In this document: one piece after another, positions 9,813-44,393 of the stretch
Layout of the letters: each line of letters begins with the position of its first letter
Numbering within the stretch: the stretch's first letter is position 1
NCBI GenBank assembly: GCA_035772785.1
Contig: JAOCPU010000035.1
Location: forward strand, 294,791-358,790
Direction of reading: 5' to 3'
DNA: 64,000 nt
Source: Phlebiopsis flavidoalba
Lineage: Eukaryota > Basidiomycota > Agaricomycetes > Polyporales > Phanerochaetaceae
Made by a program: the position numbers and the translations under genes
The notes under the pieces: generated by a model
Databases searched by the model: none
Seen by the model: the letters and a program-made list of their open reading frames with translations, nothing else
What the model was told of the DNA's origin: nothing

Positions 9813-9865
9813 TATATATGAGGACACATCTGAGGTAGTAAGGGATCAGCAGAGCAGGTCCTCTC
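9813..9865 (+). promoter_or_regulatory. TATA box and shared 5' UTR element of SSP1
   Basis: TATATAT at 9,813-9,819 lies 82 bases upstream of the SSP1 ATG. The downstream leader contains CAGCAGAGCAGGTCCTCTC (9,847-9,865). The same 19 bases occur in the leader of SSP2 (44,360-44,342, minus strand), where a TATATAT lies 78 bases before that ATG. Shared spacing and sequence indicate duplicated, retained promoters. Confidence 0.8.
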
Positions 9866-9894
9866 GTCAGTCGCTTTCATATTCCTTCCCAAAG

Positions 9895-10303
9895 ATGCAG
9901 ACCATCGCATTCTTCGCCATCCTCGCTTTCTCCTTCCAAGCTCTCATGGGTACCGCTACGGCCGGTACAGCCCAGTGAGCTTGTCTAGCCGTGAGAGCAT
10001 GCCATTTAATGGTGCACACCAGACATGAGATAGTAAGTCTTCGCCGGCAGAATGTATCGCTCTCAGCTGAGCTAATGGGTGCGCAGCGAGCATGGTAGGG
10101 CTATAGCGTCGAACGTCACGGCACCGCGAATACCACTTTGGCAACCTCGTCAGTGGGGTAAGTAGCCAGCTCAGCTTTTCGAATTGTATCAACATCATAG
10201 TTTGATTGTTGGTTATAGTTCTGGCTCGGTCGGCGAGCCCGTGACCGAGCAAGGCGGCGCGCCCCACGTTAGGATCCGCTCATCGCGAGGGACTGCGACC
10301 AGC
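9895..10303 (+). CDS. Small secreted protein SSP1
   Basis: Unknown function. The ATG at 9,895 opens a typical signal peptide (MQTIAFFAILAFSFQALMG). Exon 1 runs 9,895-9,974, the intron GTGAGC...CTATAG 9,975-10,106, exon 2 10,107-10,157, an intron with GTAAGT follows, and exon 3 runs 10,219 to about 10,303. The frame is kept across both junctions, giving NTTLATSSVG in exon 2 and GSGSVGEPVTEQGGAP in exon 3. The exon sizes, intron phases and motifs TTL, VTE, GGAP and DCD match SSP2 at 44.3 kb. A one-base shift before the DCD segment of exon 3 is needed to stay aligned with SSP2, so the copy is either broken or misread. The last exon was not found. It faces the pectin methylesterase gene tail to tail. 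Confidence 0.7.
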
Positions 10304-10626
10304 GTAGTGACGACATGTGATAGTATAATAGTGTGGCACTCACGGAACGTCTCGTAGTTCGGGAACATTTTGAGGACTGCCTTTCCGATAATGTCCCCGA
10401 GTTTGGATGTCTCCCAACCGAAGTAGCATATCCTGTCAAGCATTGTACGCACAGCGTATTGCGGATACAGCCCGGTGGCGTGTGACTTCCATAGCTGGAA
10501 TAAATATGAACGCCTCTGCTACTCTGGAGGAGTACAAACCCGGTCGATGTGCAAAATCCTTTCACATGAGTCGAATTGCATTGCATTAAAAGGTCTTCGA
10601 CATGACGCTCACATACCATGACGCTG

Positions 10627-12040
10627 CTAAAGGTACGTGCTATCCACCCAGCTAGTATAGCTCGACCCCAGGACGGCATCGATAGTATATGTTGCCGCCT
10701 GACTGCTTGTGAGTACAGTCGCAAATGACGGTCGCGATGCGCCCGATACACCTGACCCCTGTGCTGTCGTAATCGGCAAAGAATACATGATCGGTGTTAG
10801 GTGTGCTCGAAGACCACTCGGACCACATTGCCTTGTTTCATCTAGTGATATCCGTTCACAGTGAATATATTGGGACGACGCAGAAAGGAACACGGAGCTT
10901 ACGGGCGCCGTGATAACTGTATTTTTTGAAGATGACTCTGAAATTTAGGAACTATAGGTTAGCTCATTTAAACGGGACCCTATATAGTCTACTCGCTTAG
11001 CGTAATCTGCAACGTCCACGTTAGCACCAGCTTTGCGAACGAGATGGAGGCGTACCTGACCAAGGTCTTCCTAGATAAACATTCCCGGTGACGTTCGAGA
11101 ATGCATCAGAAGCGGCGATGACGGTATTCGACTCAAACAGGTCTGTATATTCGTTCAGTTCGCGGTCTTGGGCGCTATGAAAAAGGTCAAAAGGGTGACG
11201 TACACATGGTGTCGTCATTGGACGACCTACCGGATGCAGTTATGCAACCTGCACCCTTGCTCGCGAGAGTGTTTGCCCTTGAAGTATGCTTGACCGCGTT
11301 GACCAAAGATATAATCGACGGCACCCTGTAACAGAACCAGTCAATTCGGCGTGCCGCCAAAAAATGGTCGGACGTGTGGCTCACCTCGATGTAAGATTTG
11401 AGATATACTTGGGTACCCTGCTCGGCCCAAGACAGTATCCTAGCGTCGAATGAGCCTAGATCATTCAGAATACTTATAGACACTGTTTCTACCTGGTACG
11501 AAAAGAACCGACACGCGTAGGGGGGGGGGGGCGCCAAATTGGACTGCCGTAGACGCACTCAATGCGAGAGCTTGCCCTTGCTCTTCGCGACAAAAGACCG
11601 AAGTCATTGCGTACGTCGATGTTGTACAGACGAACATTGTTTGAGTGCACTTGCAGTGTGCCGGTCGCGTCGTCGCTGGCGGAGGTCGCAAGCGAGGCGC
11701 TGTGAGTGATGACGACTTGGTTCTTCGTGAAATCCATCGTGTCTGACGTGTATCCATAAATCTGAAAGAAATATGAGCAAAGGTCATGAGGCAGGGGAGA
11801 CAGTGTACCGTTACAGCACCACTCCGTTAATGAGTACTTGCTCCTTGTACGTCCCCGGATAGATGAAATATGACCTGGGACGACCCATCGTTGGGCAAAG
11901 ACGCGACAGCGGCTGATAGTGTTTTTGTAGGGACCTGAAGAAGGATTGACAACAACGGAACCGGATGGCGGAGACATCCGCGACGCGGCCAGTACCAGCG
12001 CTGGCAAGACGCACCACGGCGAGCAGAGAGAGAGGAGCAT
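10627..12040 (-). CDS. Secreted pectin methylesterase (carbohydrate esterase family 8)
   Basis: Removes methyl esters from homogalacturonan in plant pectin, outside the cell. The ATG at 12,040 starts a signal peptide (MLLSLCSPWCVLPALVLA). Family landmarks follow in order: SGPYKT, IYPGTYKEQVLIN, a stretch ending QVHSNNVRLYNIDVRNDFG, QFGA-YACRFFSYQ|D with an intron before the Asp of the QD motif, AEQGTQVYLKSYIEG, GAVDYIFG with the catalytic Asp, ITASGRSSND, YLGRPW with the substrate-binding Arg, and a tail ending SSYTSWVDSTYL. At least five short introns separate these blocks. The coding sequence is interrupted by an extra A near 11,931, an extra T near 11,868, and a 12-G run (plus strand) at 11,520-11,531 where the codon needs two. 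The active-site motifs survive, so the gene was probably intact and the breaks may be sequencing errors. Confidence 0.92.
11520..11531. repeat. 12-base poly-G tract inside the pectin methylesterase
   Basis: The surrounding codons, read on the minus strand, require GGCGCC TACGCG (Gly-Ala-Tyr-Ala). The tract instead has about ten extra C on the coding strand, which shifts the frame. The flanking frames agree again on both sides. Confidence 0.9.
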
Positions 12041-12059
12041 TGTTATAGAATCCTTGAAG

Positions 12060-13540
12060 ACATGGCGGTCGAGATGAGGGGTATTTATGGAGTCTTCCAA
12101 GAGTGGACTTGGTTCTTCGAGTGCGCGCACCCGGGGCAGCGCCAACATGACCGGCAAAGTTGCACCACAAGGGGGGGCGCGGCCCGCCGGGAGCAGTTCC
12201 TGAGAAGGATGACCCATACGAAGTGGACATTCTTGCACCACACGACCTCGCGCCGACCTTGACGACAGCGAACAGAAGTCATCAATTTCATTCTGCAGAG
12301 CATATGAGATGATGACCGTACATATTTCTATGCGATCGGACGACTGGGGGACGCACTGCGGAGGATCATCGCGGCAGATCAACGGACTTTGACAGCTTTC
12401 CGTCGTTCGGAGCCATAGGGTTGTAGTATTACTGTGTCTATGACGAGTCAGGCGTTCAAAACGTGACCACATGCTGAGCTTAGGCGGCGGTGCTCACTTT
12501 CGTCTAATGCCGACATCCACTTCGAAGAGAAAACTGGTATGTTAGACTATGTTATGCTCGGGATGCCTGACCTGGCGTCGTCGAGGTGATGAGACCAGTG
12601 CTGTTCCTATAGAGGGTCGCAGAAGAGAGGGGCTCATGTTGCTCATCGTCGGAATATAGGCCTCCCGGCGATAGATAGATGCAAGAGTGTTATAGTCTAG
12701 AGTGGGTCGTTGGCCATCGTCGCGAGGCTAGAATATTTGTCCTAGTGAGAAGTGATAGATTGGGAGAGGTTTTTGATGAAACGTCGTAGAGATCTCAGAG
12801 TGCTCCTATGCGCCGTTGGACAGATCCAGGAGGGATTGCGCAAGAAACCGTCATCTACCCTTCTTGAGATTTTTGACTGCGCCTCGTGTCCAGGTATCGT
12901 CGAACGCAGAACGGCTCCAGTCCACAAAGAATGAACGTGATCATCCGCGACCGCCTGAGCTATGGCGAGACGTGATCCACTGTCCCGAGTGTAAAGGACG
13001 AAAGCTTCACATGGCTCTACGTCAGCGCAGCCGACACACAGCAGCGCTGTACACGTACCTGGACGGGTGTTCAAATTTAACAAATCTGAAGGTCTGCAAG
13101 CGATGCCAACATGTCTCCAAACGATATTCCAAGGCCAGGACGAAGCACAGCGTGAACTCCGTGGAAAATCCAGACAATACAAACAATTTCTTCTTTTTCC
13201 TGGTACTCACGCGGTCCAACCTTCTGACAGCTTCCATGAGACGTCCAACGTCTACGCCATGGATAATGTGACGACCTTCGCTGACAGTCGCGGCGTCGTG
13301 GGACCGTGATTCCTCAGCAGGTTATGTACCGAGTATTCCTTGGGATAAAGCCGGGTAGCAAACATGGACGGCAAGCTCTGATCCAGCGTCAGCATTTGCA
13401 CATACTACAGACGAAGAGCATACCGCCAAAAACCGCACGATATTTCTTTCCTCCAGGTAGCCAGTCCTGCCGGTTACTGCACCACCGCCAAATAGTTCAC
13501 GAGCGCTACAGCGTCGTCCCGCCGAAGGTCCACCACCTCA
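12060..13540. other. Unassigned stretch between pectin methylesterase and DUF6535 gene
   Basis: The minus strand carries several moderately long frames (for example 13,182-12,742, and a short segment near 13,280-13,210 reading GRHIIHGVDVGRLMEAVRRL before a possible GTGAGT donor). They may be exons of a gene I do not recognise. No start, motif or consistent frame could be established. Confidence 0.3.
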
Positions 13541-13554
13541 TCCAAACACTTCCA

Positions 13555-16107
13555 TCACATGACCAACTGCATCTGGAGCATCGAGCAGGCCTTCAGCTCG
13601 GGATGATGGAGAGCTCGAGAAGACTCTCCGCCGATCCGCTGGCGCACTGAGAGTACCGTCCTCCGCAGAAACACCACGACCCGACAACCCGACCCCCGCC
13701 GCGCCCTCCAGACGAAAACTACATCGCGGCTCATCACACGCCCCCGCCCGCAAACCATGCGACACATGAAGGAGCTCGGGGACGTTGTACGCACGTGGGC
13801 CGGTGACGAGCCCCGCGCTGCGTGTGCGCGCGCAAGAGCATGCAGGAGACGGAGGTACGTGCGGTGCCGCGCGGGGGAGAGCGCGGGTGCGTGGTGTGCG
13901 CGCATGCCCCAGAGGCGCGCGGGCCACGGCAGCTCGAAGAAGCATCCACAGTGCGCGATGTGCGCGTGCAGCGCGAGGGTCACGAGCTCGGCCATCTTTG
14001 GCGAGCACGGCGTTCGTCAGGTCGAGTTCGTCGGGTCCGTCGAGCAGCCGGTTCAGGTAGAGAAGCCATTCGTTGCAGAGAAGGACGAAGATGTGGATGT
14101 CTTCGGGGTTGTAGTCTTGCATGTCGCGGGAGTAGTAGTTGCAGATAAAGAGCGAAAGGGAGCGGGCGGTCATCTCTCCGGACTCTGTCACTACAAAGGT
14201 TGAGTGAGTAAAGGCTCGATTGAACCTGCGAATGAAGAGCTTACGCGACACAATGCCACCACTACATTCTATCGTCCCCAGTCGACAAGCGATAATGAAC
14301 GCGGATGACCTCAAGCCGGAACATAGACTGTCCAATGCATCCTTCAACTCCGCGTCACAGACCAAGGTCCGAATGCCCTTTACATGATGCGGTGTGATCA
14401 CAAGCGAGCGATTCGTGCAGATGCTGCCCAGTACACAGAGCAGCCCGAGAATCATCTTTCCAAGCGCAAACGACGCGCGGCCTTCCCTCAGGGGCGTCTC
14501 GAAAAGGTCTCGATGGCAGCACAAAAGGTCCGCTGCAACGAGATGCGAGAAACAGCACTACGTGCTCACTGTACAGAGTAGGGCGCAATCCGCAACTGCA
14601 CGCTTCCATACAACGCCCGCTGGCGCGCCCGCAGCACGGTCTTGTGCAACCCGACGCTCTCTACGCGCTCCACCGCCCACAACCCACGCACGAGCTCCTG
14701 CACTCCCGCGACGCCGCCGCCCGTCGGCGCACCTGTGGCCCCTCGGGTCTGCAGCGCGCCGAGCAGCGCCCAGTCAGCCACCGCGCGCACCGCGAGCGCG
14801 ACGCGTGTATCCGTGGTGGCGCCCGGGCCCGGGCCTGCGTGCAGCGATCCGAGGCTCTGCACGGCGTGCGCGTGGCAGCCGCGCGTCCTGCGACGCCTGC
14901 TGCACCCACGCGAAGCGCGCGGAAGAGCAGCGCGCACTCCGCCGCGTCGCGCTGCGCGGCGTGGCCGGACCCCGCGGCAACCACGCCGGCGCGCGCGGAG
15001 GGCGCGAACTCCGCGTAGACGGCGTCTTCGAGCGCGCGGGGGCGAGTCGAGGGCGTGCGGCGCGCCGGGCCAGGGCTCCCCGCCGGTGTCGGCGCTGTGC
15101 CCGCTGCGGTCGCGCTCGCGCCAGGCGCGAAAGCGGGGCGTCCAGCGGATGGTGACGGCGGAGAAGTGCCAGTAGCGGCGGCCGTGGCGCAGGGTGTGTG
15201 GGCGTGTCCGACGACAAAGTCGGTGGAGTACTTGATGGTGCTCGACAGAAAGCTCGCGAGGACGACACAGGCCCAGGCGGTGGGCGACTTGTACGGACAG
15301 CGCCGGAAGAAGACGGGGAGGATGGTGAACGCTGACTGGGGGGGGGGACACCGCTCCTAGGAAACCTACTATTGCTGCAGTGATTACGATGGCGACAACG
15401 GTGTCGAGGGTCCACGAGCAGAATGACGAGCCCTGCAAGGAAGAGAATCATGGCCGTCTCGAGAAGTGCGGGTACAGACGATATGGTTGCGGCGACGTTT
15501 CCAAACGCTTGCCAGGCCTCGAAGGGGATCTGCCGGACGAGCACGTTGTCGCGAGGCGTCCCTAGCGTCGAGTTCCATTGGCATGTATTCGCGTAGCCAC
15601 TGCTTTGCGAGTATGCCGAATAGAGCGGCAGAGAGGCTGAACACAAGACTGAGGAAGAAGAGGACGTTGATCCATCGAGCAGCCGTAGATGGAGCGAACG
15701 ACGTTGAGATGGCAGGAGTGGATGTCATACTGCCGTTCAAGGTAGCATCTAGCCTGAGAAAATACCCTCTAGAAGCTGATTCGTGGGTGTCGGTACTGTC
15801 TGGTTGTAACATTGTGTATGTTTCGACGACGAAGGCCGTGAGTACCGCGGAGAAAATAGACCAGCCTTAAAGTTCCTGGTTAGCATACGTCTCGGTCAAA
15901 CAACATAACTTACAAAGACGAGCAATGTATCTATGTCGTCTGCATAGTCTTTGACCATACCAGAATCATGTTTTTGAAGGTAATCTTCAATGGCTGCCCA
16001 CCCCGTTAGATGATTTCTTGGGGTGGACGGTGCGACAGGCTGGTAGAGACGATTCAGCAGCGTTCACTTCTCCCAATTGATGCCTTTACCTCATTGATTT
16101 CCCCCAT
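13555..16107 (-). CDS. DUF6535-family multi-pass membrane protein
   Basis: DUF6535 proteins are abundant in Agaricomycetes; their function is unknown. The proposed start is the ATG at 16,107, with introns at 16,089-16,040 and 15,913-15,866 (both GT-AG). The next parts read WAAIEDYLQKHDSGMVKDYA, DDIDTLLVF|AGLFSAVLTAFVVETY, then NVLFFLSLVFSLSAALFGIL with AKQWLREYM, NSTLGTPRDNVLVRQ, ALLETAMILFLAGLVILL and TVVAIVITAAIVGFLGAV. These are the family's paired membrane helices and AKQWLREY signature. A long C-terminal part includes HIFVLLCNEWLLYLNRLLDG and a His/Ala-rich end stopping at 13,555. Frames change several times, including at a 10-G run (15,338-15,347) just after the last helix pair; each change is a small indel. 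The family call is firm, the exact C-terminus less so. Confidence 0.83.
15338..15347. repeat. 10-base poly-G tract inside the DUF6535 gene
   Basis: On the coding strand it is a C run right after the hydrophobic segment ending FLGAV. The family continuation (a segment like ITILPVFFRRCPYKS) is found only after a frame change at this run, so the run length is probably inflated. Confidence 0.8.
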
Positions 16108-16641
16108 TCTTCGAGGGTCGTACGCCTACCCACAACCTACCCAGGTATGGTACAGGATTTGAGAGTGTTCGCAACATTTTGGCAGATGCTCAAGGCGTGG
16201 TCCCAAGCGCTTTGATACCCGTGGGGAGTGACATGTCACGGGACTATAACGCGAACCGTCACAGCGTCCACCCCTAATGAAGCCGCCCTTGTTCCCGCGT
16301 CGGGCGGCTTCCCATCTTGGCACTTGCCACCGCCTTCCATCCTTTGCTCGACGCTACTCTCTTCGACACTGTCGCGCTCTGCGAGCTCATTGCGCGGTAC
16401 ATTAATCACATCTTAAATCCTCCCGGCCAAAGCTAGCAGCTGTGGCGCCCGCATCGGCCCAAGCAGTGGGAACCGAACATCAAGTGCTAATAAGCTTTGT
16501 GCGTCCTCTTTGTCTTCACTTCTCATGCCTCGTATTTAACCTTCCCCTAGCCTCCTCTGTGCTCCTTTCTTCCCAGAAGCACCTTTCTCTCCCCCTATCC
16601 CCAAGCTCTTTGAATCTACGAACAGAGCAAGTCAGCCGCAC

Positions 16642-17589
16642 ATGGATTCTACACACCAACCTCCTCGCCGCCGCCGTCACACCGATCCCGCCGTGCCGAG
16701 GCCCCCGGCCCTAAACTCACGCTTCAAGCGACGAACCTCACTCGAAATCGCCCTCGACATCCTGCTGTCCAACTCGCAGCCGATTACGATTCGCAACGCG
16801 CTCGCAGCGTACATCCAGGCCGCAGACTTTACGGCCCGACGCCGCGTCCGAGGACGCGGTCACCGTCGAAGACGCCATCATCGCGTTCGAACACGCCCTC
16901 GACAAGCATCCACTACCCCTGTATGCTTCGCTGCTCTCGCCGTACGCGCATCCTTCACTCGCGCCGAAGCCGCGCAAGAACAAGAAGGTCCGCGCAAAGA
17001 AACCCGCTGCGTACGCTCCTGCTGCGTACGCCGCCGGCTCTGCGCAGACAGAACCTGTATCCTATCGTCGGCCATATATCGACGAAATCAATAAACTACG
17101 GCATGAATATTACACCGAGAAGGTCGAGAACGCGATGAAGATGGGCTCCTACCCCTGCACTTGCGGCAAATGGGCGGCGACCCCAACCTCGACCTCGGCG
17201 GGTACCTCTACGATGCCTTCCAGCGGCGATACCGGTGGAAGGTATGGACAATGCTACGGCTACGAGGTGGCCATCGAGTACGGTATAGACCCGCAGTTCG
17301 ACATCCAGGCGGCCATGGAGAGCGGGATGCTGGGAACGTGCGGGGTCGAGGGATGTTCTTGCCAGTACTACTCCGCGCAACAGGACGCATATACCCAACG
17401 TGAGTACACTCTTTTCCAAAATAAAACCCCTACCGACCCTCCCCGCTGCGCAGCCCTACTAAAGAAGCCCAAAACGCGGCAAGACAAAGACCAAGAAACG
17501 ACCCCGAGCGGCTCCCAATGAGCCCGCCGGCCCGCCGCCTGCACCTGACCCCTTCGGCCCCTCGACCAGCGCCGGCCGTGACGCTCTGA
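16642..17589 (+). CDS. Conserved basidiomycete hypothetical protein, Cys-rich C-terminal part
   Basis: Function unknown, although the sequence looks like a conserved fungal family. The ATG at 16,642 leads into a basic N-terminus, then TSLEIALDILLSNSQPITIR and NALAAYIQAADFTA. A one-base excess of C near 16,842 shifts the frame; after it come an acidic segment, a Lys/Pro-rich linker (KPRKNKKVRAKKP), PYIDEINKLRHEYYTEKVEN and AMKMGSYPCTCGK. In a neighbouring frame GGDPNLDLGGYLYDAFQRRY is followed, back in the first frame, by QCYGYEVAIEYGIDPQFDIQ and MLGTCGVEGCSC. The two switches fit single-base indels. A GTGAGT...GCAG intron is likely at about 17,400-17,455. The end is either 17,521 or, with one more shift, 17,589. 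The Cys residues suggest a metal or structural site. It lies head to head with the DUF6535 gene, about 530 bp apart. Confidence 0.65.
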
Positions 17590-18072
17590 GCCCCCCGCCC
17601 GCACACACGCCTTGACGACCTGCAATTACCCCTCCACATCCCATGTCATTCCCACGCCATACCCGCACATATATATATAGATCGCATGTATCATAGTCGA
17701 CCGCCTCGTCCCCGTTTCTTTTCTCTCCGACCTCGATTTGTACATGTATGCCGACCTCCCCTACGTCCATCTTTGTGTGGCTCGATCTTTGACGTATTTT
17801 CCTTGGGCTTTTTGTTGCGTGTGTGTATGTATTACCCCATGGTGTTTCGATCTTCGTATTCATTGTTACGTGATCTCTACAAGGTCCTGTAGTCTCCTTT
17901 CACAACTACTTCCACGGGTAACTGCGAAGCAAGCGTGCATATTCCAGCAGACTTCAGTCGGCCACCGCTCGATGCAAATCCTTGTTTACCGCGCAGAACA
18001 GTCTTGTCGAGCTTTGCTCGAAGATGCATGGCCATGAGATAGAATATTTTTCGTTCTCGCTGGCTTTGGTTA

Positions 18073-18183
18073 AAGGAAATAAATATTTATTGGAATTTAA
18101 CAGTCGCTGGGCGTTAAACATTTTAAATAAGGAAATAAATATTACTTGGAATTTAACAGTCGCTGGGCGTTAACATTTTAAAT
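18073..18183 (+). repeat. 55/56-bp tandem repeat, two copies
   Basis: AAGGAAATAAATATT...GGAATTTAACAGTCGCTGG... occurs at 18,073-18,128 and again at 18,129-18,183, with three small differences. It lies in the intergenic DNA before the first F-box-like gene. Confidence 0.93.
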
Positions 18184-18549
18184 CAGTCTGTGCAAGGATT
18201 TTTTTTTCGCGGACCTTCACGACCACCTTCGCGGTAATCAGTGCTTTGCCGTTATAGTTGCATGCTCAATTCAGATCTTTAAAGTGTATTGTCCCACAGG
18301 AGAGGATGGACCTTCCACATTCCACCACAGACGAACAGCTCAATTCGCCCAGGGTGTGTGCGTCGTCTGACGCCGCAGGCGTGCCCTGGGGGGACCTCGA
18401 CGTGCGAGATCGTCAGCCCCACAAAGTCCCACACCCAAACCACCGGTGGGCAGAAGATTTGTGCGTATGAACTAAATAGAAATCTGCTCCAAAGCCTGGG
18501 CACACCAAATAATAACGCCATATTTTAGGGAGATGCTAGACCTACGCAA

Positions 18550-20220
18550 ATGAAGTTACCATGGGATGTTCTCATCGAGATCATGCTGTGTATCAATACT
18601 AGTATTTATCGTAAGGCCAAACGACGCCTCTGTGATGACGATGATGGATGCACACTTGCCGTACACTCTACACTGCAGGAGCCCCAGACCTAGTCAGAGG
18701 AGGCGTCTAGTTCCTTGACAACATACATCGTTTCCTTAGCTTCTGCTCCTTCATGATCAGCAACGGCACAGTACCTCTCAACGCCTCGACAAATTGCGAA
18801 TCGACGCATATTACGACTGGCAGTCCCTGGATGAAGCTTCACGCAAGAGGATATTCAGGAAGATATCAAGAATGTTTAACCGGCTGTACCCACCTTCGCG
18901 TGTTGGGATTTCATGGCAACACTCCCGAGTTCTGTCTCGACGAGAGGATTGCCCGCTCCATCGCTTCTCTTCCATCCTTGCGCAAGATTTCCCTTCACCA
19001 GATCGATGAAAACGCTGCCTTTCTGATGCGGCAACACTTCCAGTAAGCTCCTCTCCAGATAATCGACGCAAGTTTCGATCCTGATTGGGCGGATTCGACG
19101 GAGGACCTCGAGGGCCCAGATCCTGTGTCAATGTTCAAGCAATTCAGTCACTCACTTCGGACGCTTTCAGCGTCATGGGCCCGATTCAACGCTACGCACA
19201 TCCCTTTTTTACACACGTTGTCACGCTTCGGATCGACCTTTACCAACTGGCGCGACGGCATGCTTCACCGCACATTTCCCAATCTACGCCATTTAGAAGT
19301 ATTACCCATGTGATCACACAGAACTGGAGCATGTCGAGGGCATGTGCGCGGGCGGACAATCTTCGAGAGGCGAGGAGAGTCGGGGACTTGGCAGTCTTTT
19401 GGATTACTTGTCCGCACAGAACTCGGCATAGCGTACGGTCTTGCGCTCCAGAGCAAGAATCGAGCACTTTATGTCTAAAACATTTACGACGTGGACAGCA
19501 CGAATACGTGCACTGTCTTCAGACTGTCTTGGCCGAATACGCAGTGCCCACAGCGCTCAGTCTGAATCGATTGACGCTGCCCAGGATTCGATCCCTCTAC
19601 TGCATCCTGCAGGTGCGAGGAGTGGCCTGTCACAGGCGCAAAATAGTCTCGTCTCGAGCTCCGCCTGTGTATGGTACATATTCGGTGTGGACGACTATGT
19701 TGATCCCACCGTCTTTCACGCCATCCGCCAATGCTCGTGAGTGGACCCCCTTTACGTCTGGGCTCTTTTTCTGACGATGCTTAAAGAACACATTATTTGC
19801 GGCGCTATCGCTGTGTCTCAATGTCAAATCCAGGTCCTTGACATCTCTCTAGATTGGCAATATAATATTCGGTCTCCTGTCCACCATTTGTTCGCAACCC
19901 ACACGCACGCGGGAGACGAAGACCAGTTTTGCATGGTACCACACGTACCCCGCCGACCGGTGTGGCCACTCAACTTGAGCACCGACTTCGATCCCCTGAT
20001 AGACGTGGCTACCCAATCCATCTCGACGCTGAGATACTTCAGCCTAAGGCTGCCAAACGCGCGGCCTTCTGCTCAACGCCACTGGGAGATTCTGGTCGAT
20101 TCGCACGGCAAGAGGGTGCCCATGGCACGCACAGGAGACGAAGAGAAGGGGTTATTCAATGACTCCAGGATATTCCGCGGTCCGTCTTCGCCACACCTTG
20201 AACATGACGAACATTGGTGA
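18550..20220 (+). CDS. F-box-like / leucine-rich protein, tandem copy 1
   Basis: F-box proteins recruit substrates to SCF ubiquitin ligases, and Agaricomycetes carry hundreds. The ATG at 18,550 gives MKLPWDVLIEIMLCI, the usual degenerate F-box opening. Further exons follow: RIDAYYDWQSLDEASRKRIF, CLDERIARSIASLPSLRKIS, IDENAAFLMRQHF, SMFKQFSHSLRTLSASWARF and FPNLRHLEVLPM. These have the spaced leucines of irregular LRRs. Later frames to about 20,220 contain VDDYVDPTVFHAIRQCS and FDPLIDVATQSISTLRYFSL. Frame changes occur every 100-300 bases, some from introns and others probably indels. Copy 2 follows 390 bp downstream in the same orientation with the same block order. Confidence 0.6.
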
Positions 20221-26980: not shown

Positions 26981-26985
26981 CTCAC

Positions 26986-31125: not shown

Positions 31126-31138
31126 GGGGGGGGGGGGG
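31126..31138 (+). repeat. 13-base poly-G tract next to CCGGCGCC
   Basis: The run is directly followed by CCGGCGCC. The same G-run/GGCGCC neighbourhood occurs at 11,520 and 32,300. Confidence 0.9.
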
Positions 31139-32299: not shown

Positions 32300-32312
32300 G
32301 GGGGGGGGGGGG
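32300..32312 (+). repeat. 13-base poly-G tract next to CGCCAA
   Basis: The run is followed by CGCCAA, the same continuation as after the poly-G run in the pectin methylesterase (11,532-11,537). Confidence 0.9.
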
Positions 32313-35300: not shown

Positions 35301-35645
35301 CCCGTTAGGCTCTACGCCGCTAAATGGTCGTTCGAAGCAACATTGCTCCGCAACCGTGCTCGCAGAACTCCCAGCCAGCGGGTTCGCCCGTCGCGCCCGC
35401 GCGTTTGTTGCGCGCATGCGCGTATACGGCCGCAAGGGGCAGCGGAGAGCGAGAGGCAAAGCGGCGATCTGGGAAGACATCGGACAGCGCAGATCTTGGT
35501 CCGCGAGACGGCGCATCGGCAGTCGGAGCGAGGGTGTCGGCTATTCGTGCTCCGAGAGAATATCGGAACGAATTTTTCGAGGGCAGCTGGTGATGTGTTT
35601 GTGACGTGTTTGGGCGGATTGATGCAGCCCTGGGCGGAGGGCGAA

Positions 35646-35653
35646 TATTTAAA
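35646..35653 (+). promoter_or_regulatory. TATA-like element of the H+-ATPase gene
   Basis: TATTTAAA lies about 180 bases before the proposed ATG. It is followed by a pyrimidine-rich stretch (CCTCCTCTCACCCCAAC), a common arrangement in highly expressed fungal genes. Confidence 0.5.
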
Positions 35654-35828
35654 GGTTGGCTATCCCTCCCCGACGGCCAACCTCCTCTCACCCCAACCAC
35701 CGTAATTGCTGTCGTCGTCCCCCTTCCCCGCTCTTTCTGAGCAAATCCGCATAGAAAGCCCCCTTAAAAGGGTCTTCCCCCCTCGCCTCACATCGCGTAA
35801 CAAACCGCTTGTGTCCTCTCTTTTCGAC

Positions 35829-38800
35829 ATGGTCCGCCAACGTCCGAGAAGGAGGCGCGGGCCCCTACCGAGCCCGTCAAGGATACCAACCAGACCCCCC
35901 ACTCCCTCTGAGGCGCAGCCCGAGAAGAAGAAGAGGGAGTACAAGGACTTTGGCCAATGAGGAGAGGAGAAAGCTACACGTTACGTATTCTCGCCATCCC
36001 GCCCTACCCTCCCACAAAGGGGCTGACCCGACTTGCTCCCCGCAGATGCGAAAGTGGACACATGTCCCAAGTGCGCAACCCATTGGCTTTTCATCAACGC
36101 AACGAACATGTAGCTGACACGTATACAGATCCAACTTCGCGCGGGAGGATTTGTACAGACAAGGACAAGGTTGATTTGGAGACCATCGTCGTAGACGACT
36201 GTGTTTCAAGCTGCTCGCAATGTACGGAAGCCGGCCTCGACTCTGCCGAGGCCACCCGCCGTCTGGAGCTATTCGGGTCCCAATAGGCTCGAATCTGCGG
36301 AGCAAAATCCCTTCCTGCAGTGTTACGTCGCCTACGTCATGTGTGCGGCGTGAGACCGAACTGACGCCGTTGTTTCAGTTTCCTGGTTTCATGTGGAACC
36401 CGCTCTCATGGGTTATGGAGAGGCGGCGGAGGCCGCCCTCGTCGCACATCGTCCTCTCGAACGGCGAGCACATGGCCGGGGCGCCGATTGGGAGGACTTT
36501 CTAATCATCGGTATCGTCCTGCTTCTCTGTTCGTCAACTCGGCCACTCGGTTTCTACGTAGGAGCGCAACGGGCCGGTAACGCCGTCAGGCGCTCATGGA
36601 CTCGCTCGCCCCCCAAGGCCAAGGTCAAGCGCGACGGCTCGTGGAAGGAGATCGAGTCCGCCGAGCTCGTGCCCTGGGGTTGACATGGTGCCGTTCAAGA
36701 TTGGTGACATCGTTTCCCTGCCGACTGCCGTCTCTCGTCGAGGCCATCAACGTCTCTATCGACCAGGGCCGCCCTCACAGGAGTGAAGTCCTCCCCCAGA
36801 GGCAAGAAGACCGGTGACCAGTGCTTCTCGTAAGTTTTTCGGCTCGTTGCATGCTGTCGCCGCCTTGTACTAACGCGTCTTCCAGCGGCTCTACTTTGCA
36901 AGCAGGGTGAGGCCGAGGGTGTCGTCGTGCATCTCCAACACCGGTGGGGGCCACCACACTTTCTTCGGTCGCGCGGCGTCGCTCGTCGGTCAGGACGACG
37001 ACACCACGGGTCACTTGCAGAAGATTCTCGCCCAGATCGGTGCTTTCTTCCTGCCTGATGCCGTTATCGGTATCTTTCATCATTGCCGAGATTTTCTGCT
37101 TGTACGGGGGCCGGCTTCCGCTACCACTACCGTCGCGGCATCAACGACATTTTGGTGCTTTTGATCGGTGGTATCCCCATTGCCATGACCCACTGTCCTC
37201 TCCGTCACTCTCGCCGTCGGTGCCCAGCCAGCTCGCCAAGTACAAGGCTACATCGTCACCCGTATCACCGCTATTGAGGAGTTGGCCGCCGTCACGATTC
37301 TTGTGCTGCCTGACAAGACCCGTACGCTCACCCACCAACAAGCTCACCATCGACAAGAGCACCTCAAGACGTACGGCCCCTTCTCCGCTGACGACGTCAT
37401 TCTCCTCGCCGCCTACGCTTCCCGTACCGAGAACCAGGACGCCATCGACTCTTGCGTCGTTGGCGCCATCGGCGACCGGCCCGTGCCCGCGCTGGCATTA
37501 AGCTCCTCGACTTCAAGCCCTTCAAAACCCCGTCGACAAGCGTACCGAGATCACCTACCGTGAGGAGGCCACCGGCAAGGCGGTTTCCCCCAAGCCAAGC
37601 GTTTGTCACCAAGGGTATGACATTATGACCCGGTATCATGCATCGAATACTCTGCACGCGCAACCAAGACCGAGAGAGTTCCCCCCTCAGAGGAACGTCT
37701 CGAGGCCGAGCGCGAGTGAATTCGCTACTCGTGGACTCGTGCCCTCGCCATCGCGTACGAGGAGGTCGACGGCGACGACTTTGAGGCTGAAGGCAACGGC
37801 TTCGAACTCATCGGTCTCCTTTCCATCGTTCGACCCTCCCCGTGACGACACCCAAGCAGACCATCGTGACGAAGCGCCATGGCCCTCGGTGTCAGGTCAA
37901 GATGGTCACCCGGTGACCAGCTCGCTATCGCAAAGGAGACTGGCCGTCGTCCTCGGCCTCGGCGACCACATGTATCCCCGCCAAGGTTCTCAAGGACGGC
38001 CCCGAGCCCGGCTCCCGCTTCCGCACTCTCGACGAGATGATTCTCGACGCCGACGGTTTCGCCGGTGTCTTCCCCGAGCACAAGTACGAGATCGTCAAGC
38101 GTCTCCAGGGTCTCGGCCATTCTCTCTGCGCCATGACCGGTGACGGTATGCCAACGAACGCCCCCGCTCTCTCCAGTGCCAATAGCGTCGGTATCTGCCG
38201 TCGATATGCGGTGCCACGACGGCTGCCCGATGGCGCCCGGTGCCGACATATGTCCTCACAGCGAGCCCGGTCTGTCCACCATTGTGTCCACGGCCATCCG
38301 CGGCTCTCGTGTCATCTTCCAGCGTCATAGTATGCGCAAACGAACTCCATACTACGCGTGCGCCGTCGTCACGATCCGTCATCGTCGTCTGTTTCGTCGA
38401 TCCTCGCGTTCGCGTTCAAGTTCGAGCTTCCCGCCGTTCATGGTCCTGATCATTGCCTCCTCCAACGACGGGGCGATACTCATTCCATGGACCCTCTCGC
38501 TCCAGAACTCGCGTCCTGCAATCGAAACCACCCCAAGGGAGGGAGTTGGTAGGAGCGAGGGGGACCCCGACAGTTTTGGAACTTTGGCTGAGATTGCATT
38601 CGGCCTACGGCGCGGGTGCATGGCTTACACGGTCTTTCTGTCTACCAACACCCTCTGTCTCAATCGCGACGTAAAAGTGACTGTCAATTCATCATTGTGA
38701 TAGCCTCTCGATGCTAACTACCTTCACAGGATCGCGCTCGTCGCCGTCTGCATCCGCACCGACTGGTTCCGGACCGCAAGTTTCGGCGTCACCTTCTCGA

Positions 38801-39487
38801 ACGGCGCCGTCAACCGCCGCAGGGCGACACAACGACCCCAAAGTTGCACATGATCATCATGCTACCTCCAGGTCGCCATCATCTCGCAGTGGCTCCTCAT
38901 CTTCATCACCCGTTCGCACGTGGCTTCTTCTTCATGGATTCGTCCCCCTCAGGGCTGCCCCTCTTCTTCGCGTTCTGCTTGGCGCAGCTGTGCTCGTCTC
39001 GTCGATCATTGCCGCGTACGGTGAACTGGGGCTTCACTCTCATCGCTGAGCCTCTCGAGGGTGGGTGGATTGGTAATTGTCTGGGTCTGGGTAAGTGCTT
39101 TGGTTACTTGTCTCTACTATCCAGTCACTCATACATGCGCGCAGGACTTTGTCTGGTTCGTGCCCATGGATCTTATCAAGTTTCGCGATGAAGGCCACTG
39201 TCATCAAGTACTTGCGCAACCGCCACGAGCGTGCCGTCCGCGCCGAGACTGCCCAGGTCGCGTCTGGTGTCCCAATAACATCACCCGCACCCAGTCCCCC
39301 GCGCCGCGTCGATCCACGAGTCCCTCTACTCGTATACCGTGTCAGCTTCCTCCGCCGCGCCGCCCACAAGGTCGGCTTCCGGCAAAAGGTCTCGGTCAAG
39401 CCCGAGGAGCTCCGCCGCTTCTCGTCGATCCAGGCCGCGCAGACCGGCTCCGTCCTCGCGCGCCATCCCTCGCGCCCCGCTGCATAG
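35829..39487 (+). CDS. pma1: Plasma-membrane H+-ATPase (P-type, P3A), heavily frameshifted
   Basis: Pumps protons out of the cell using ATP, setting the membrane potential used by transporters. The segments follow the family order: acidic/basic N-terminus with KKKREYKDF (35,925); [14 protein letters not shown] (36,160); [18 protein letters not shown] (36,388); [19 protein letters not shown] (36,620); [29 protein letters not shown] (36,960); [13 protein letters not shown]; the phosphorylation region, here LPDKTRTLT (37,305); [20 protein letters not shown] and [24 protein letters not shown] and [33 protein letters not shown] (38,134); LMKATVIK-like C-tail to [19 protein letters not shown], stop at 39,487. 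A frame change is needed roughly every 60-150 bases and the two catalytic motifs deviate, so it is either a poorly sequenced functional gene or a pseudogene. Small introns are probable at about 36,830-36,885 and 39,090-39,145. Confidence 0.9.
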
Positions 39488-39499
39488 ACGTGGACTACC

Positions 39500-42200
39500 T
39501 CTCGCACGCGTCGCGGTCGTTCGTTGGAGGTCGTCGCAGCAAGATCAATCGGTGTCACCGTTCCTTTTCTAATTTCATCTATCCTGTCTTAGTACGCCCT
39601 TTCACCTCCTGCCGCCGCATCCCCCTCGTCCAAGGACAATGACATCGGATACCCGTTCATGCTCGTGTTGACTCTCGATGGGTAGTTGTGCCGTTCGGCT
39701 GCCGTGCGCTGTTGTGGTTCCACCGGTTTTTCTTCTCTCCCATAATTTTCTTCCTGCATAGCCATGTTTCAATTCTTACGATTTGTCATATTTCCCTTTC
39801 ATGACCTTGACGTCTGGTGCCGGTAGTAATATTTCTTTCTACGTCGCACTCATTCACACATACGACGACCAAGCCAGCCTAGTGTACAAAGGAAGCACGT
39901 AATATAGACTTGTGATAACCAAAACACAATGTGTGACTACAAGTGCGGTGAATGACTTGCCAGTAATGCTCGAGCGACGACGACGGTGACGGCGAGGCAG
40001 TCGCCGACTCCGCCCTACGCGTCCCGAGTCCCGACTCGCATCTTGACTTGAACCATCATGACCTCATACCACACTCATCGGGCGGCGACAACACCTCGAC
40101 ACTCGGCCCTTGCGATGCGAACGCTATAATTACTGACCGGGTTTCAACCTAGAAATAACTCGCCATGTCTGCACGCCGGTCCCGGTCGCGCTGCTCCGTC
40201 GCATTCGCATCTCGCACGATGCACATGCACGCGCAACTGCGTCCGCCGACGACGCTGGCGCAGCCTCTTCGCTATTTTCGAACACGGGTGCGCGGAGACG
40301 GGGTGGCGAGGCGGTCAGCTGGTGTCGCCCCGTTCTCCAGCGGCGGAGCGCGAGCATGCGCAGATGGGGGAGATGCGGCGGCGAGATGCGTGTGTGCGGG
40401 ACCCGGGCTCGTGTAGGAGGTGCGCAAGTTCGGTCTTGAGGCGGGCTTGTCCTGTGTGCTGATTACACTCTGCTGTGCGTGGATAGGGTGTTGCTTCTCT
40501 GAATTTGCGCTCCGGAGCAAGGGGAGAGAAATGCTCGAAAACTCGCCTGCGGTTTTTGCACCGATTACTGTGACGGATTTGGTTGGTGGGGAGAGGCCGA
40601 GATATGCGCTGTGCACACGTTTGTGCTCTCCCGTGGAGCCCAAGACGGGCCCAAGACCACGAGCGAAGGGCGCAAGTCATTTCGGAAGCATAATGAAAAC
40701 TTGGAGGGCGGACGAGAGGAGATAGCGTCGGCACGACACGTCACCTTTCTCCCCAGCTGTCCACCCTTGTCCACCTCGACCCCAAGCCGTGCTTGGCAAC
40801 AGTCTAAATGCCAATGCGCCGAGCCCAGCACCCGGGCTGCGCTGCGTCGAATGAGACGACAGCGATTGCTACCTGCTGGTGAGATTCTTGTTTTGCCTCT
40901 TGGCTCTGTCTGACGGCTCAGGATTTCGTTAGGCTGTCGCCATAGGTCCCTTCTCTGTGCACCACCACGAACAGGCGTACAGTTGCTGGAGAATATCGGC
41001 CCCGCGTTTACCAGGACTTTGTACGTCGCGCCAATGTATCTACCCTCGCCGCCTACTCAATGATCACGATATGGTCCAACGAGCCTTGTGATGCATACAC
41101 TTCGACCATGGCCTCGGCTACTGATGCCAGATAGCGACCATAAGCCACGAAACTTAGACCGTTCAGTCGTCTCAAAGTTCTCAGCCTCGCCGTCTCCTCG
41201 TATTCGAGCAGACCTAGCGGCCCCGTCCTAATCACTGGTCGAGACTGTTCTTCCCGAAGCTTTGCTTCTCGCTGTGAATGAGCAAGGGGCTCGAAATCGA
41301 AAGAGCATCCGAATACGCTGCATCTCATCTTCGGCATAGGCCCGTTAATGTCGGGGTCACCGCATACCGAGCCCCCCCTTTGTACCCAGATCGCGTTCGT
41401 ACTCGACAAGATGCCCACAATGAAGGACGGAGGCGAATCGCAGCATCTACCTGCATCGACACTATCGCGCCGTCGTCCAGGTCACCAGCGCGCGCACGAC
41501 ATTCGCAGGTGCCTAACCGTCGTTCGATCTTGACATACGACTATCGCTCAGACAGCTGTCTGGTGGGTAACCTATGTCCAGGGTACTTGATCGTCGTCTG
41601 ACAGAATCCATTTAGACCACACCCATCGATAGTTCATTGACCCGCGGCGGAGGAGTAAATGCCGCGGGCCCGCGCCACGCTCTGGCGTGTCATGTCTGAC
41701 CCCGCATCGCCGCGGTATATGGATATGGGGATGTAGACCTGAGGCGCAGTCCAAGTATCCTAGCGCTAGTCAGACGTTCTTCGACCTAGTACAGCACTCA
41801 GAAGGAAACCGGTGACACCAAGGCGAATACACGGCCAATCCATACCGGTCACCAAGGACGTTTTCCTTGCAACACAAGTATTAAAAAGTTTCGACTGCTT
41901 CGATGCATTCCAATGTATAGGAAGTGTCAAACTGTACTTCTGTGTGTCGCCACGCACGCCAGCCAAGGTGATCCGCCTATCCGTATATCACCGTCGTGCA
42001 GAAGGGCGATGCGACATGTGTCCGAGCCTTATCCTCTAAGACGAGCCTCAGAAGTCGATGAAGCCAGGCTGAACTCTCTTTCTTTCCCTTTTGCGAGTGA
42101 GTGTTCATTTACCGTCCTAGCTCGCTGGACACTAACTCTAGCACCTCCAGTCGCGCCGTTCGTTCCCGCCCCTTCACCAACCAGCTGGCTGGATCATTCT
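39500..42200. other. H+-ATPase 3' flank and unassigned DNA
   Basis: Immediately after the stop is AT-richer DNA consistent with a 3' UTR to about 39,950. From 40,100 to 41,800 several minus-strand frames (40,734-40,130; 41,418-41,053) look weakly coding, for example LKTELAHLLHE and LRTLRRLNGLSFVAYGRYL. I recognise no family and cannot link them. Confidence 0.35.
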
Positions 42201-42210
42201 TCGGTTCACC

Positions 42211-42364
42211 ATGCATCTCCCCGTCATTTTCCATCTCACTCGTCTCCTTCGCGGCCGTGTTGCTCGCTGCCCCAATCCCCCATGCACCCTCAGTATCAGA
42301 CGCAAGACCGTCTCCGCCTCACGATGACAAGGCCCCGGCACTAGACCTCCTCTGCAGGGGTTAG
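42211..42364 (+). CDS. Small secreted protein candidate SSP7
   Basis: The ATG at 42,211 (MHLP) followed by a one-base shift gives SFSISLVSFAAVLLAAPIPH, a convincing signal peptide with AAP. A short Pro/Ser/Asp-rich mature part (SVSDARPSPPHDDKAPALDL) stops at 42,364, or may splice onward at CTGCAGGGG. The frame change sits in a run of C just after the ATG. AAPIP after the signal matches SSP5. Without the shift the ATG frame has no signal peptide, so the call depends on the indel being an error. Confidence 0.4.
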
Positions 42365-42419
42365 CATCGTTCGGGAACAATGGTCCAAAACTTTAACCCA
42401 GTCTTCAAACAGTTTAGGA

Positions 42420-43780
42420 ATGGGTACGTCTGCTCCCTTGTGTATTTCAGACTCCTCCTGAAACGTCACATGTAGGTTCAACGGTGTCTTTTGACCAGGA
42501 CTCTGTCATGTCGTGGTGCATATCTGGGCACGTGCTGTTAGAAGGACACTTGGACATTGAAGAAAAGGCTACTGAATTGCAAGGTCGCAAGACAAACGAC
42601 TGATTGTAGGTTATGAGATTGAAAGTGGTATCGCATGAAAAGGCGTATTTTTCAACTTATTGTTCCTGTATCATCATTTTCGTTCAGATTATTGAAACTT
42701 GACATTTTCACTCAGAGCGACCCCCTGATCATCGTGAACTATGACAGTAGACTTCACTCGACGCATAGAGTAGTCATGGATGAACTGCCGCGAGTGGACC
42801 AAATCGTCACATTGACCCCCTTCCACGGAGCCGTCATTCGCGTTCAACTTCTCCGAGTTCGTAACGATGGCTCAGCCGCTGGCATCCTCAGCAGAGGCTA
42901 TACAAACTACTCACTCTGTGTGAGCGTGTATTTGCTCCGTGCCTACATGCTACTGCGAGTGCATCGACCGAATTACTTACACGCGTTGGGAGACAGACGG
43001 ATAGATGAGCGTTTAGATCAAATTCGAGCCCAGAATGGGTAGATCGTAGATAAAGCGACAAACAAACGTCGGGCGGACGAGCAATCCAAGCCCGAGGCCA
43101 CTACTGTCACCACTACCACCACCCACCGTCGACGATGGTTTTCTTCGGCAATGAGAGAAGTATTCTCCTATCACGTATTGTGATAATTCTGCTGCAAATA
43201 CTCACTGGGAAGCGTGCTGCCCAGCGCGACTCGTAGCGTTGTAATGGCTTACCACACCCATCGAGATATCGCGTTCAGGCTGTGGTCTTGAGGCTGTTAG
43301 ACGAAGGTCTGCTCTCGAAGGGAGCACGGACCTGCCAAAATCTGAATGTACTGTATGTTTCCTTCTTAGTCATCTGCTGTTTGCTCAATCAGATCTTTAC
43401 ACTAGTCTTCACAACGTCCTCGTCCACTTAGTGACGGTGACCCATGAACTAGGCACTTGATTTGTCTACCGGCTGGGCTCTGCCGAATTTTGCGACACAC
43501 AGAAGTCAAATCTCGGCGAAACCAAAGATATTGGTGGGTTCGCCGCTCAAACTGACCTTACCGTGAGGTCGTCATACCTCGTGTGTCCATCGCCAGAAGA
43601 TTTGGTCCCCCATGAACTATTGCGAGCCAGCCAGAGTCTCACCATATCTCATTAGCGTCAGTCCTCGGTTCTAACTTCGAGCCTTGGTCACGAAAGTACG
43701 TCCCCGAACCGCGATCATTCCACTTCAATTGACGGTAGGAACGTTTAAACTTAGGCTGAATACAGACGATTGACTACGCC
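42420..43780. other. Intergenic DNA with one unassigned open frame
   Basis: A plus-strand frame (42,635-43,042, about 135 codons) starts KRRIFQLIVPVSSFSFRLL and has hydrophobic patches but no recognised motif. The rest up to the end of SSP2 shows nothing supported. Confidence 0.3.
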
Positions 43781-43787
43781 ACAAGCT

Positions 43788-44315
43788 CTATCCACATAGT
43801 CCAGTACTCGCAATGACATCATTTTGGAAGAACCCTGAGCTCGCCAACGCTGCAGGTAGGGACCTTTCTTCAAAAAAATACATCATTGCCTGAGCTAGAA
43901 GACGAGCTATGAGTCCCACACGATTATTTTTCCGTATGTCGCTACTTACGCGGGTCGCAGTCCTTCGATTCACTGGGGATTGTAGGAGCGCCGCCTGACT
44001 CAGTCACTGCGCCTCCAGAGCTATATGATCATTGACTACTCCGCCTATTGTGATGGAGAAAACACGACTCACCCTTCAGGTGCAGTACTGTTGAACAGGC
44101 CGAGCGTGGTGGCCCTAAGATGATGGCTAGTTAGCCATCGAAGTAAATGGGATTCATACGTCCTGCATGACGAAGACTCACGATTCCGTGACAGGTGCTC
44201 CGCTCAAAGGCTCTACATCACGGCTGAGCTGCAGACCAGGCTGCAGAGGCCGAGCAGCACCCATGAGGGCTTGGTAGGCAAGAACGAGGATGGCGAAGGC
44301 TGTGGTAGTCTGCAT
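43788..44315 (-). CDS. Small secreted protein SSP2 (four exons, about 102 aa)
   Basis: Best preserved member of the small secreted protein family; function unknown. Exons are 44,315-44,182, 44,114-44,073, 44,020-43,950 and 43,849-43,788. All introns are GT-AG (GTGAGT, GTGAGT, GTAAGT donors) and the frame is continuous to the TAG. The signal peptide is MQTTTAFAILVLAYQALMGA. The mature part reads RPLQPGLQLSRDVEPLSGAP, then VTES|ATTLGLFNSTAPEG, SGGAVTESGGAPTIPSES, KDCDP and a tail ending FFQNDVIASTGLCG. VTES and GGAP recur within it. Exon 1, 2 and 3 phases equal those of SSP1. The last acceptor (CTGCAG) is chosen because it keeps the frame; an alternative acceptor 16 bases earlier exists. The two mature cysteines (KDC and LCG) could pair. 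Confidence 0.75.
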
Positions 44316-44341
44316 TTTGCGAAAGAGTGCGGAAGGGATTG

Positions 44342-44393
44342 GAGAGGACCTGCTCTGCTGGAGACTCCTCGCTCTAGCGGCACTGCATATATA
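44342..44393 (-). promoter_or_regulatory. TATA box and shared 5' UTR element of SSP2
   Basis: TATATAT at 44,393-44,387 lies 78 bases before the ATG. CAGCAGAGCAGGTCCTCTC at 44,360-44,342 is identical to the element in the SSP1 leader. Confidence 0.8.

What the first reader, a model, noticed from the sequence alone, without database searches (positions are those of the whole stretch)
9813..44393. Two dispersed small secreted protein genes share TATA spacing, a 19-base identical leader element and exon phases
SSP1 (plus, 9.9 kb) and SSP2 (minus, 44.3 kb) both have TATATAT about 80 bases before the ATG, an identical CAGCAGAGCAGGTCCTCTC in the leader, signal peptides starting MQT, and matching exon borders and phases (exon 2 ending with TTL..., exon 3 containing VTE and GGAP). 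The mature protein is far more diverged than the leader. Conserved regulation with a fast-changing secreted product is typical of effector-like or communication peptides. The sequence match is direct; the role is inference.
Basis: partly seen in the sequence, partly recalled or inferred. Interest (0 to 1): 0.82.

Follow-up and report, generated by a model that had tools for sequence, protein, structure and literature searches.

The report
Promoter-defined fungal secreted-peptide gene family
The two small secreted-protein genes belong to a larger fungal family, most of it on one contig, whose members differ almost completely in protein sequence but share the same short mirror-symmetric DNA tag between the TATA box and the start codon.

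Summary
SSP1 and SSP2 carry TATATATG at -82/-78 and an identical 19-mer with no other exact copy in the 36.3 Mb genome. They are the best-preserved of four gene pairs, A-D, in an inverted duplication: 5.3-10.4 kb against 43.9-49.3 kb. The 19-mer contains a dyad element, AGAGC(N)GG(N)YCTC. It recurs 33-41 bp after a TATA-type box and 37-54 bp before an ATG at 11 loci over 73 kb of contig C35, two on C11 and one on C49. The C49 locus was picked by promoter searches alone and looks like a clear family member. Around the element these leaders align no better than chance. Proteins share only short pieces: (A/T)(R/L/E)P at the signal-peptide end and GAP in many. SSP1's frame is broken, but BiP and Rpb2-type genes are also broken in this assembly, so pseudogene status is undecidable. 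Best reading: co-regulated precursors of secreted peptides evolving by duplication and divergence. An effector or communication role is untested. No STE3 or UstYa match lies on C35.

The parts
9813..9820 (+). TATATATG box of SSP1 (gene D1)
9847..9865 (+). 19-mer with dyad element core AGAGCAGGTCCTC at 9851-9863 (D1)
9895..10363 (+). SSP1 (D1): ATG, signal peptide MQTIAFFAILAFSFQALMG, later frame-broken exons with VTEQGGAP; homologous block ends about 10363
44386..44393 (-). TATATATG box of SSP2 (gene D2)
44342..44360 (-). 19-mer with dyad element core AGAGCAGGTCCTC (D2)
44182..44315 (-). SSP2 (D2) exon 1, 134 nt, signal peptide and ARPLQP; ends at GTGAGT
44073..44114 (-). SSP2 (D2) exon 2 (ATTLGLFNSTAPEG)
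43942..44020 (-). SSP2 (D2) exon 3 (GGAVTESGGAPTIPSESKDCDPRK, stop); a further spliced exon via GTAAGT is possible
   Evidence: end computed from the 84-residue model
5351..5679 (+). gene A1: AGAGCAGGACGTCC leader and ORF from 5457; pair partner of A2
48989..49310 (-). gene A2: TATATG 49305-49310, ATG 49200, exon 1 to 48989 (IAFSGARTPSNSDVVQDLREGSDG)
6913..7543 (+). gene B1: TATATAAT, ATG 7142, ERHGYIGSGA piece; pair partner of B2
46758..47346 (-). gene B2: TATATATATAG, ATG 47138 signal-peptide ORF, ERHGYFGSGAP piece in another frame
8393..8700 (+). gene C1: TATATATG, ATG 8584 (MKAF), frame-broken; pair partner of C2
45518..45894 (-). gene C2: TATATAA 45888-45894, ATG 45713 (MKAFLSLLFTTLVAMGLL), second frame with GGKDCIRRGGAPETYLGKIEGLRPG
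5343..10363 (+). left arm of the inverted duplication (A1-B1-C1-D1)
43889..49287 (-). right arm of the inverted duplication (D2-C2-B2-A2 read along +)

Best explanation
SSP1 and SSP2 belong to a multigene family of short secreted precursor proteins in a fungus, probably an agaricomycete. SHOWN by sequence: a TATA-type box, then 33-41 bp from its first base to the first base of a dyad-symmetric 13-mer AGAGC(N)GG(N)YCTC (often containing the perfect palindrome AGAGCCGGCTCT), with an ATG 37-54 bp after the first base of that 13-mer, usually opening a hydrophobic N-terminus. This arrangement marks a cluster at C35:266-339 kb, which continues into the window, plus copies on C11 and C49. Within the window, four genes were duplicated together as inverted arms. 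INFERRED: a TATA box places the transcription start about 30-40 bp downstream, where the palindrome sits, so a symmetric sequence-specific factor bound there probably switches the family on together. The signal peptide is removed near A-(R/L)-P. Some precursors are cut after KR. The short C-terminal part, in many members with a GAP core, is the likely secreted peptide and is free to diversify.
For: AGAGCMGGYYCTC has 21 sites genome-wide, 9 within C35:266-339 kb (binomial p about 1.6e-19). TATA lies 20-50 bp upstream of 9 of the 11 sites in the C35 and C11 clusters and of 0 of 10 elsewhere on the strand of the match (Fisher p 1.9e-4). TATATG plus element: 7 sites genome-wide, 6 on C35; backward control 1. 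In 194 kb of C35, element with at most 1 mismatch plus TATA plus ATG: 13 hits against 1 in five shuffles together. Element-blind scan for TATA plus hydrophobic leader over 194 kb: 6 of 7 hits in the cluster stretch carry the element, 0 of 3 outside in the same orientation (Fisher p 0.033). The C49 locus, picked by promoter and ATG searches, reads MHGVFFVSLYVSLYAVMGSARPLL...SDKRN, kin by eye to C11a and K. Mean pairwise identity of 13 leaders is 0.25-0.33 around the element and 0.88 in it (the 0.88 is partly by selection). (A/T)(R/L/E)P(L/I/V/A) follows the hydrophobic stretch in 12 of 13 loci I picked for the check. All four pairs beat every control window, 300 for A, B and D and 400 for C. 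Exon 1 of D2 and of distant member E both run 134 nt to the first strong donor.
Against: No expression, splice, TSS or peptide data. Members were recognised partly by the element itself. The TATA-plus-hydrophobic-leader scan alone is little above chance: 11 hits against 1-9 in 20 shuffles. L and M give a hydrophobic leader only after a change of frame and K's is weak. I has TATTTAA in place of TATA; E has two candidate boxes (-33 and -22) and a G at the last element base. GAP lies downstream of 11 of 18 loci against 24% of background stretches (p 9e-4), so 7 of 18 (I, G, F, B1, C1, A2 and the doubtful 257262 locus) show none. The distance to the first strong donor differs in the other members (40 to 297 nt). 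A has a degraded element, B and C none that is clear. The cluster site at C35:278844 has no TATA. One 'elsewhere' site and 'outside' ORF coincide: at C35:185797 a TATATAG and a hydrophobic ORF flank the element read on the other strand, so the strict counts are orientation-dependent. Four of the five non-cluster TATA-plus-element sites (C8, C20, C32, C55) were not examined. No homologue of D2 was found, but that database seems to hold few relevant fungal proteins.
Confidence: 0.72

Rival explanations
1. SSP1 and SSP2 are simply two diverged copies from one inverted segmental duplication; the 19-mer is a chance stretch left identical by descent.
For: They are colinear paralogues within a 4-gene duplication. 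At 78% identity a 19-base run in 126 bp arises in 20% of simulations.
Against: At identities of 0.62 and 0.70 the chance is 0.4% and 3.4%. The core recurs at the same spacing at further loci whose flanks do not align.
Confidence: 0.08
2. The genes are host-directed effectors: secreted proteins co-induced during colonisation and diversified by an arms race.
For: Small, secreted-type N-termini, clustered, fast-diverging, shared promoter.
Against: The fungus and its lifestyle were not identified; the D2 model has a single cysteine; no Pfam family matched at a credible E-value.
Confidence: 0.25
3. The genes encode precursors of signalling or ribosomal (RiPP-like) peptides, cut by a Kex2-type protease, acting between fungal cells or against competitors.
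For: KR in the first coding piece of three members (C49 in the ATG frame; K and C11a in another frame), and GAP close to a stop codon in K, C11a, D2 and B2.
Against: No clear tandem repeats of a core seen, no UstYa match on C35 (0 of 4 genome-wide), and no STE3 receptor match there (0 of 8); both searches are weakened by introns and the indel-rich assembly.
Confidence: 0.3
4. The palindrome acts in the mRNA leader (hairpin or translational control) instead of as a DNA site.
For: It lies 37-54 bp upstream of the ATG, so it is probably transcribed at least in part; AGAG/CTCT arms can pair.
Against: Arms of only 4-6 bp with little or no loop make a weak hairpin (judged by eye, not folded); the tight TATA spacing fits a promoter element equally or better.
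Confidence: 0.2
5. The element belongs to a transposon or MITE that scattered signal-peptide fragments.
For: The cluster stretch gave few recognisable genes.
Against: Only 21 exact sites genome-wide; no shared sequence beyond the element in 13 loci; TATA and ATG spacing kept.
Confidence: 0.03

Closest known systems
IGYP family of small secreted proteins in Dikarya (Cheng et al. 2014, PMC4367982; abstract and two results sections read)
   Same: Multigene family of secreted proteins with low overall similarity, short conserved terminal motifs and a shared exon structure
   Different: IGYPs of M. brunnea are mostly 187-268 aa with two conserved cysteines, IGY and QMxIP motifs; ours are about 84 aa (D2 model) with ARPL and GAP. 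A shared promoter element was not mentioned in what I read
KEX2-processed repeat proteins, KEPs (Le Marquer et al. 2019, PMC6339444; passages read)
   Same: Signal peptide, fungal secreted precursor, KR sites in a few members
   Different: No repeated core between KR sites recognised by eye; family defined by promoter; the paper's main text does not contain the word promoter
Dikaritin-type RiPP precursors with UstYa oxidases (recalled)
   Same: Secreted precursor cut by a Kex2-type protease
   Different: No UstYa match on the contig
Basidiomycete mating pheromone precursors (recalled)
   Same: Short, fast-evolving, multigene, possible communication role
   Different: Recalled as having a C-terminal CaaX box and no signal peptide; no STE3 match on the contig
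Conotoxin or frog-peptide style 'conserved leader, variable mature part' families (recalled)
   Same: Conserved leader with diversified product
   Different: Here conservation is strongest in an untranslated 13-bp promoter/leader element, and less in the signal peptide

Membership tests
IGYP | length 187-268 aa with two conserved cysteines | tested here: not met
   D2 model has 84 aa and one Cys; other members lack complete models
IGYP | IGY motif after the signal peptide and QMxIP near the C-terminus | tested here: not met
   Not seen by eye in the printed translations of the members; definition
KEP | signal peptide | tested here: met
   Hydrophobicity scan and translations; no trained predictor available; L and M only after a change of frame
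KEP | internal repeats separated by KEX2 sites | tested here: inconclusive
   KR noted in K, C11a and C49; proline-rich repeats in C11a without KR between them; frames broken
UstYa RiPP precursor | UstYa gene in the cluster | tested here: not met
   0 of 4 UstYa matches in the genome lie on C35; introns and indels lower sensitivity
Basidiomycete pheromone locus | linked STE3 receptor gene | tested here: not met
   0 of 8 STE3 matches on C35; they lie on C23, C32 and C69
Basidiomycete pheromone precursor | C-terminal CaaX box, no signal peptide | tested here: not met
   D2 ends KDCDPRK and starts with a hydrophobic leader; other C-termini uncertain; the definition is recalled
Any Pfam family | match to a Pfam model | tested here: not met
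   7 member proteins or exon-1 pieces: one match only, CstA to E at E 0.26, far below its cut-off
Transposon or MITE-borne element | high copy number, away from genes, with shared flanks | tested here: not met
   21 exact sites, flank identity 0.25-0.33 in 13 loci
Effector | expression or activity in a host | not testable with these tools
   No expression data; organism not named

The most novel reading that the evidence does not exclude
A lineage-specific secreted-peptide repertoire is defined by its core promoter and not by its protein: one dyad element placed at the transcription start acts as the family's common switch, while the peptides diverge past recognition. Members can then be found genome-wide by the promoter alone, as happened with the C49 locus.
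Probability: 0.4. Interest if true: 0.8.

Novelty: new variant of a known kind. Interest (0 to 1): 0.62.

Why it matters
Fast-evolving secreted peptides are hard to find because their proteins do not align. Here a 13-bp promoter mark at fixed spacing identified otherwise unalignable genes, and found a new one on another contig without using protein sequence. If the mark is a family switch, its binding factor would give one handle on the whole repertoire, and similar promoter-first searches could uncover hidden peptide families in other fungi. The case also shows that apparent pseudogenes in an indel-rich assembly must be checked against housekeeping genes.

Tried and rejected
SSP1 as a pseudogene: its frame breaks, and so, by eye, do those of several relatives (C1, C2, J, K, L, M, C11a, C11b). 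The control changed the reading. An HSP70 gene on C58 (BiP-like by eye) makes two changes of frame inside about 640 bases with no room for an intron. The RNA-polymerase second-subunit domain comes out in fragments at all three places it was found, with overlapping pieces in different frames on C20; introns may explain part of that. The assembly is therefore probably indel-rich, and frame breaks say little about gene death.

Mating-type or RiPP locus: STE3 and UstYa were searched and do not fall on C35.

High-copy transposon: rejected.

Protein homologues: D2 found none at E <= 10 among 6 candidates. A DUF6535 control found only one relative at E <= 0.001, so the database is probably poor in relevant fungi and the null is weak. 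No fold prediction was made. The third protein search was not used.

Papers: searches. I saw listings with abstract openings; beyond that the abstract and two sections of PMC4367982, 12 of 26 passages of PMC6339444, and a word search of PMC7329392 that returned no passage. None of the listed titles or abstract openings describes this promoter-defined family; that is not proof that none is in print.

Statistical caveats: the clusters and the cluster stretch were delimited after seeing the data. The strict GAP pattern and the post-signal pattern were also chosen afterwards; one search used 13 loci I picked (G, D2, K, L, C11a, C11b, C49, J, E, F, H, I, B2), four of them (K, L, C11a, J) read in a frame other than that of the ATG, and left out M, D1, A1, A2, B1, C1 and C2. 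The strict GAP count was 9 of 18 against 8% background. Whole-genome counts can be lower bounds by the tool's own statement. The control counts of the loose pattern (11) are close to its 13 hits on contigs other than C35 and C11, so those are mostly chance. In one search one fetched piece was missing and L008 was joined directly to the window, so its negative coordinates are wrong; one search replaces them.
Full report
What was claimed and what holds. The 19-mer occurs twice in the window and has no other exact copy in the 36.3 Mb genome. TATATATG lies 82 and 78 bases before the ATGs. The loci are paralogous over about 560 bp at 62%. The SSP2 gene model is plausible; the matching SSP1 model is not open.

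An inverted duplication. A sensitive comparison of 1.0-12 kb with 42-52 kb gave colinear inverted matches at D (9804-10363 / 44402-43889, E 1e-31), B (7198-7414 / 47091-46877, E 3e-10) and, weakly, A (5362-5422 / 49268-49212, E 0.05); the opposite orientation gave nothing better than E 6.6. A fourth pair, C (8424-8700 / 45879-45607), lies between them; blastn had not listed it, but a direct alignment found it. Each pair scored above every same-length control window, 300 for A, B and D and 400 for C. So each arm carries four small genes. Seven of the eight have a visible TATA box or TATATG; A1 has only a less clear TATATC.

A family beyond the pair. Scanning fetched C35 (194 kb) for a TATA-type box within 130 bp of an ATG with a hydrophobic leader, without using the element, gave ten hits. 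Six carry the element (269711, 274539, 279337, 285453, 304685, 339105), all inside the cluster stretch; one hit there (289603) does not. Such a scan alone is little above chance: a wider version gave 11 against 1-9 in 20 shuffles. The element makes the difference: with at most one mismatch, a TATA-type box upstream and an ATG within 70 bases, 13 hits were seen in the 194 kb against 1 in five shuffles together; at three mismatches there is no excess. Of the 13, one is a palindrome read backwards (268583) and one (298798) has no hydrophobic leader. Loci by element start on C35: I 266330, L 267473, J 268572, G 269665, H 274489, E 279296, K 282935 (minus), M 284167, F 285415, D1 304641, D2 339146 (minus). 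L and M show a hydrophobic leader only after a change of frame; K's is weak; I has TATTTAA in place of TATA; E ends its element in G and has two candidate boxes. Two more loci lie on C11 at 673118 and 674754. Six of the 13 leaders aligned have the perfect palindrome AGAGCCGGCTCT.

Genome-wide counts. AGAGCMGGYYCTC: 21 sites, 9 in C35:266-339 kb and 2 on C11; backward control 15. The number is thus not above chance genome-wide; the clustering is. TATATG plus element: 7 sites, 6 on C35; control 1. TATA plus AGAGCNGGNYCTC: 24 rows at 16 distinct sites, namely 9 in the C35 cluster, 2 on C11, and one each on C8, C20, C32, C49 and C55; control 4. Element plus ATGC: 30 rows, of which 11 C35 loci, 2 C11 loci, 4 backward reads of palindromes and 13 on contigs other than C35 and C11; control 11. 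Only one site outside C35 and C11, on C49, appears in both the TATA and the ATGC lists. Its sequence reads MHGVFFVSLYVSLYAVMGSARPLLRNPNLEYAGG...SDKRN in one open frame, close by eye to C11a and K. That is an out-of-sample success of the promoter rule. The other four TATA-plus-element sites were not examined. One further candidate is C35:185797, where a TATATAG and a hydrophobic ORF flank the element read on the other strand.

What is conserved. Aligned on the element, 13 leaders are 25-33% identical in every neighbouring 13-base block, as unrelated DNA would be, and 88% in the element. The element value is partly by selection; the contrast and the narrow TATA spacing (33-41) less so. In the D1/D2 pair only the element (100%) and the first 54 coding bases (80%) stand out. 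Nine of 18 signal-peptide codons differ, seven of them changing the residue. Mature exons are about as diverged as introns.

The proteins. (A/T)(R/L/E)P(L/I/V/A) follows the hydrophobic stretch in 12 of 13 loci picked (peptides copied, four read in a frame other than that of the ATG). GAP occurs within 650 bases downstream in 11 of 18 loci against 24% of random stretches, for example SEPYNGAPRLND (E), AEPFGGAPYLFQ (H), TTSPFFGAPKMV (J), FAFAGAP (K, and C11a outside the 18). Exon 1 of E and D2 both run 134 nt to the first strong donor, but the other members differ. No credible Pfam match.

Frame breaks. Many members change frame inside or just after the signal peptide. The same happens in an HSP70 gene and probably in the RNA-polymerase second-subunit genes, so the assembly looks indel-rich. 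I leave pseudogene status open and have mended nothing.

Mechanism. Shown: promoter geometry, locus clustering, secreted-type N-termini, inverted duplication. Inferred: start of transcription at the palindrome, a dimeric factor, co-expression, signal-peptide removal near ARP, KR cleavage in some, a C-terminal peptide as product. The role (signalling, antagonism or host effector) is open.

Novelty. Small-secreted-protein families with unified gene structure are known (IGYP). A family held together mainly by a dyad promoter element was not described in any of the titles and abstract openings listed by my searches.

Noticed in passing
window 14777-15866 (-): DUF6535 gene split over two reading frames.
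   Followed up: partly
window 52085-53891 (+): FAD-linked oxidase gene: FAD_binding_4 and FAD-oxidase_C pieces.
   Followed up: partly
window 54001-58000: AT-rich stretch, 26-36% GC against 55-57% on either side; a 41-base tandem pair follows at 58035-58116.
   Followed up: no
whole genome G000 (C58, C26, C20, C3): Assembly looks indel-rich: an HSP70 gene and RNA polymerase genes are broken across frames.
   Followed up: yes
window 18073-18182: Two 54-base near-identical tandem copies.
   Followed up: no
G000 C8:337780, C20:281195, C55:203394: TATA-plus-element matches identical on C20 and C55 and sharing their last 19 bases with C8, probably a dispersed repeat unrelated to the family.
   Followed up: no
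window 8475-8493 and 45818-45835: The C1 leader carries another inverted repeat, GGTAGTAC TTG GTACTACC, with an imperfect counterpart in C2 (by eye).
   Followed up: no
G000 C35:185797-185870: TATATAG, the element on the opposite strand, and a hydrophobic ORF (MLPAALVALAFAVLA...) about 80 kb from the cluster: a possible further member.
   Followed up: no
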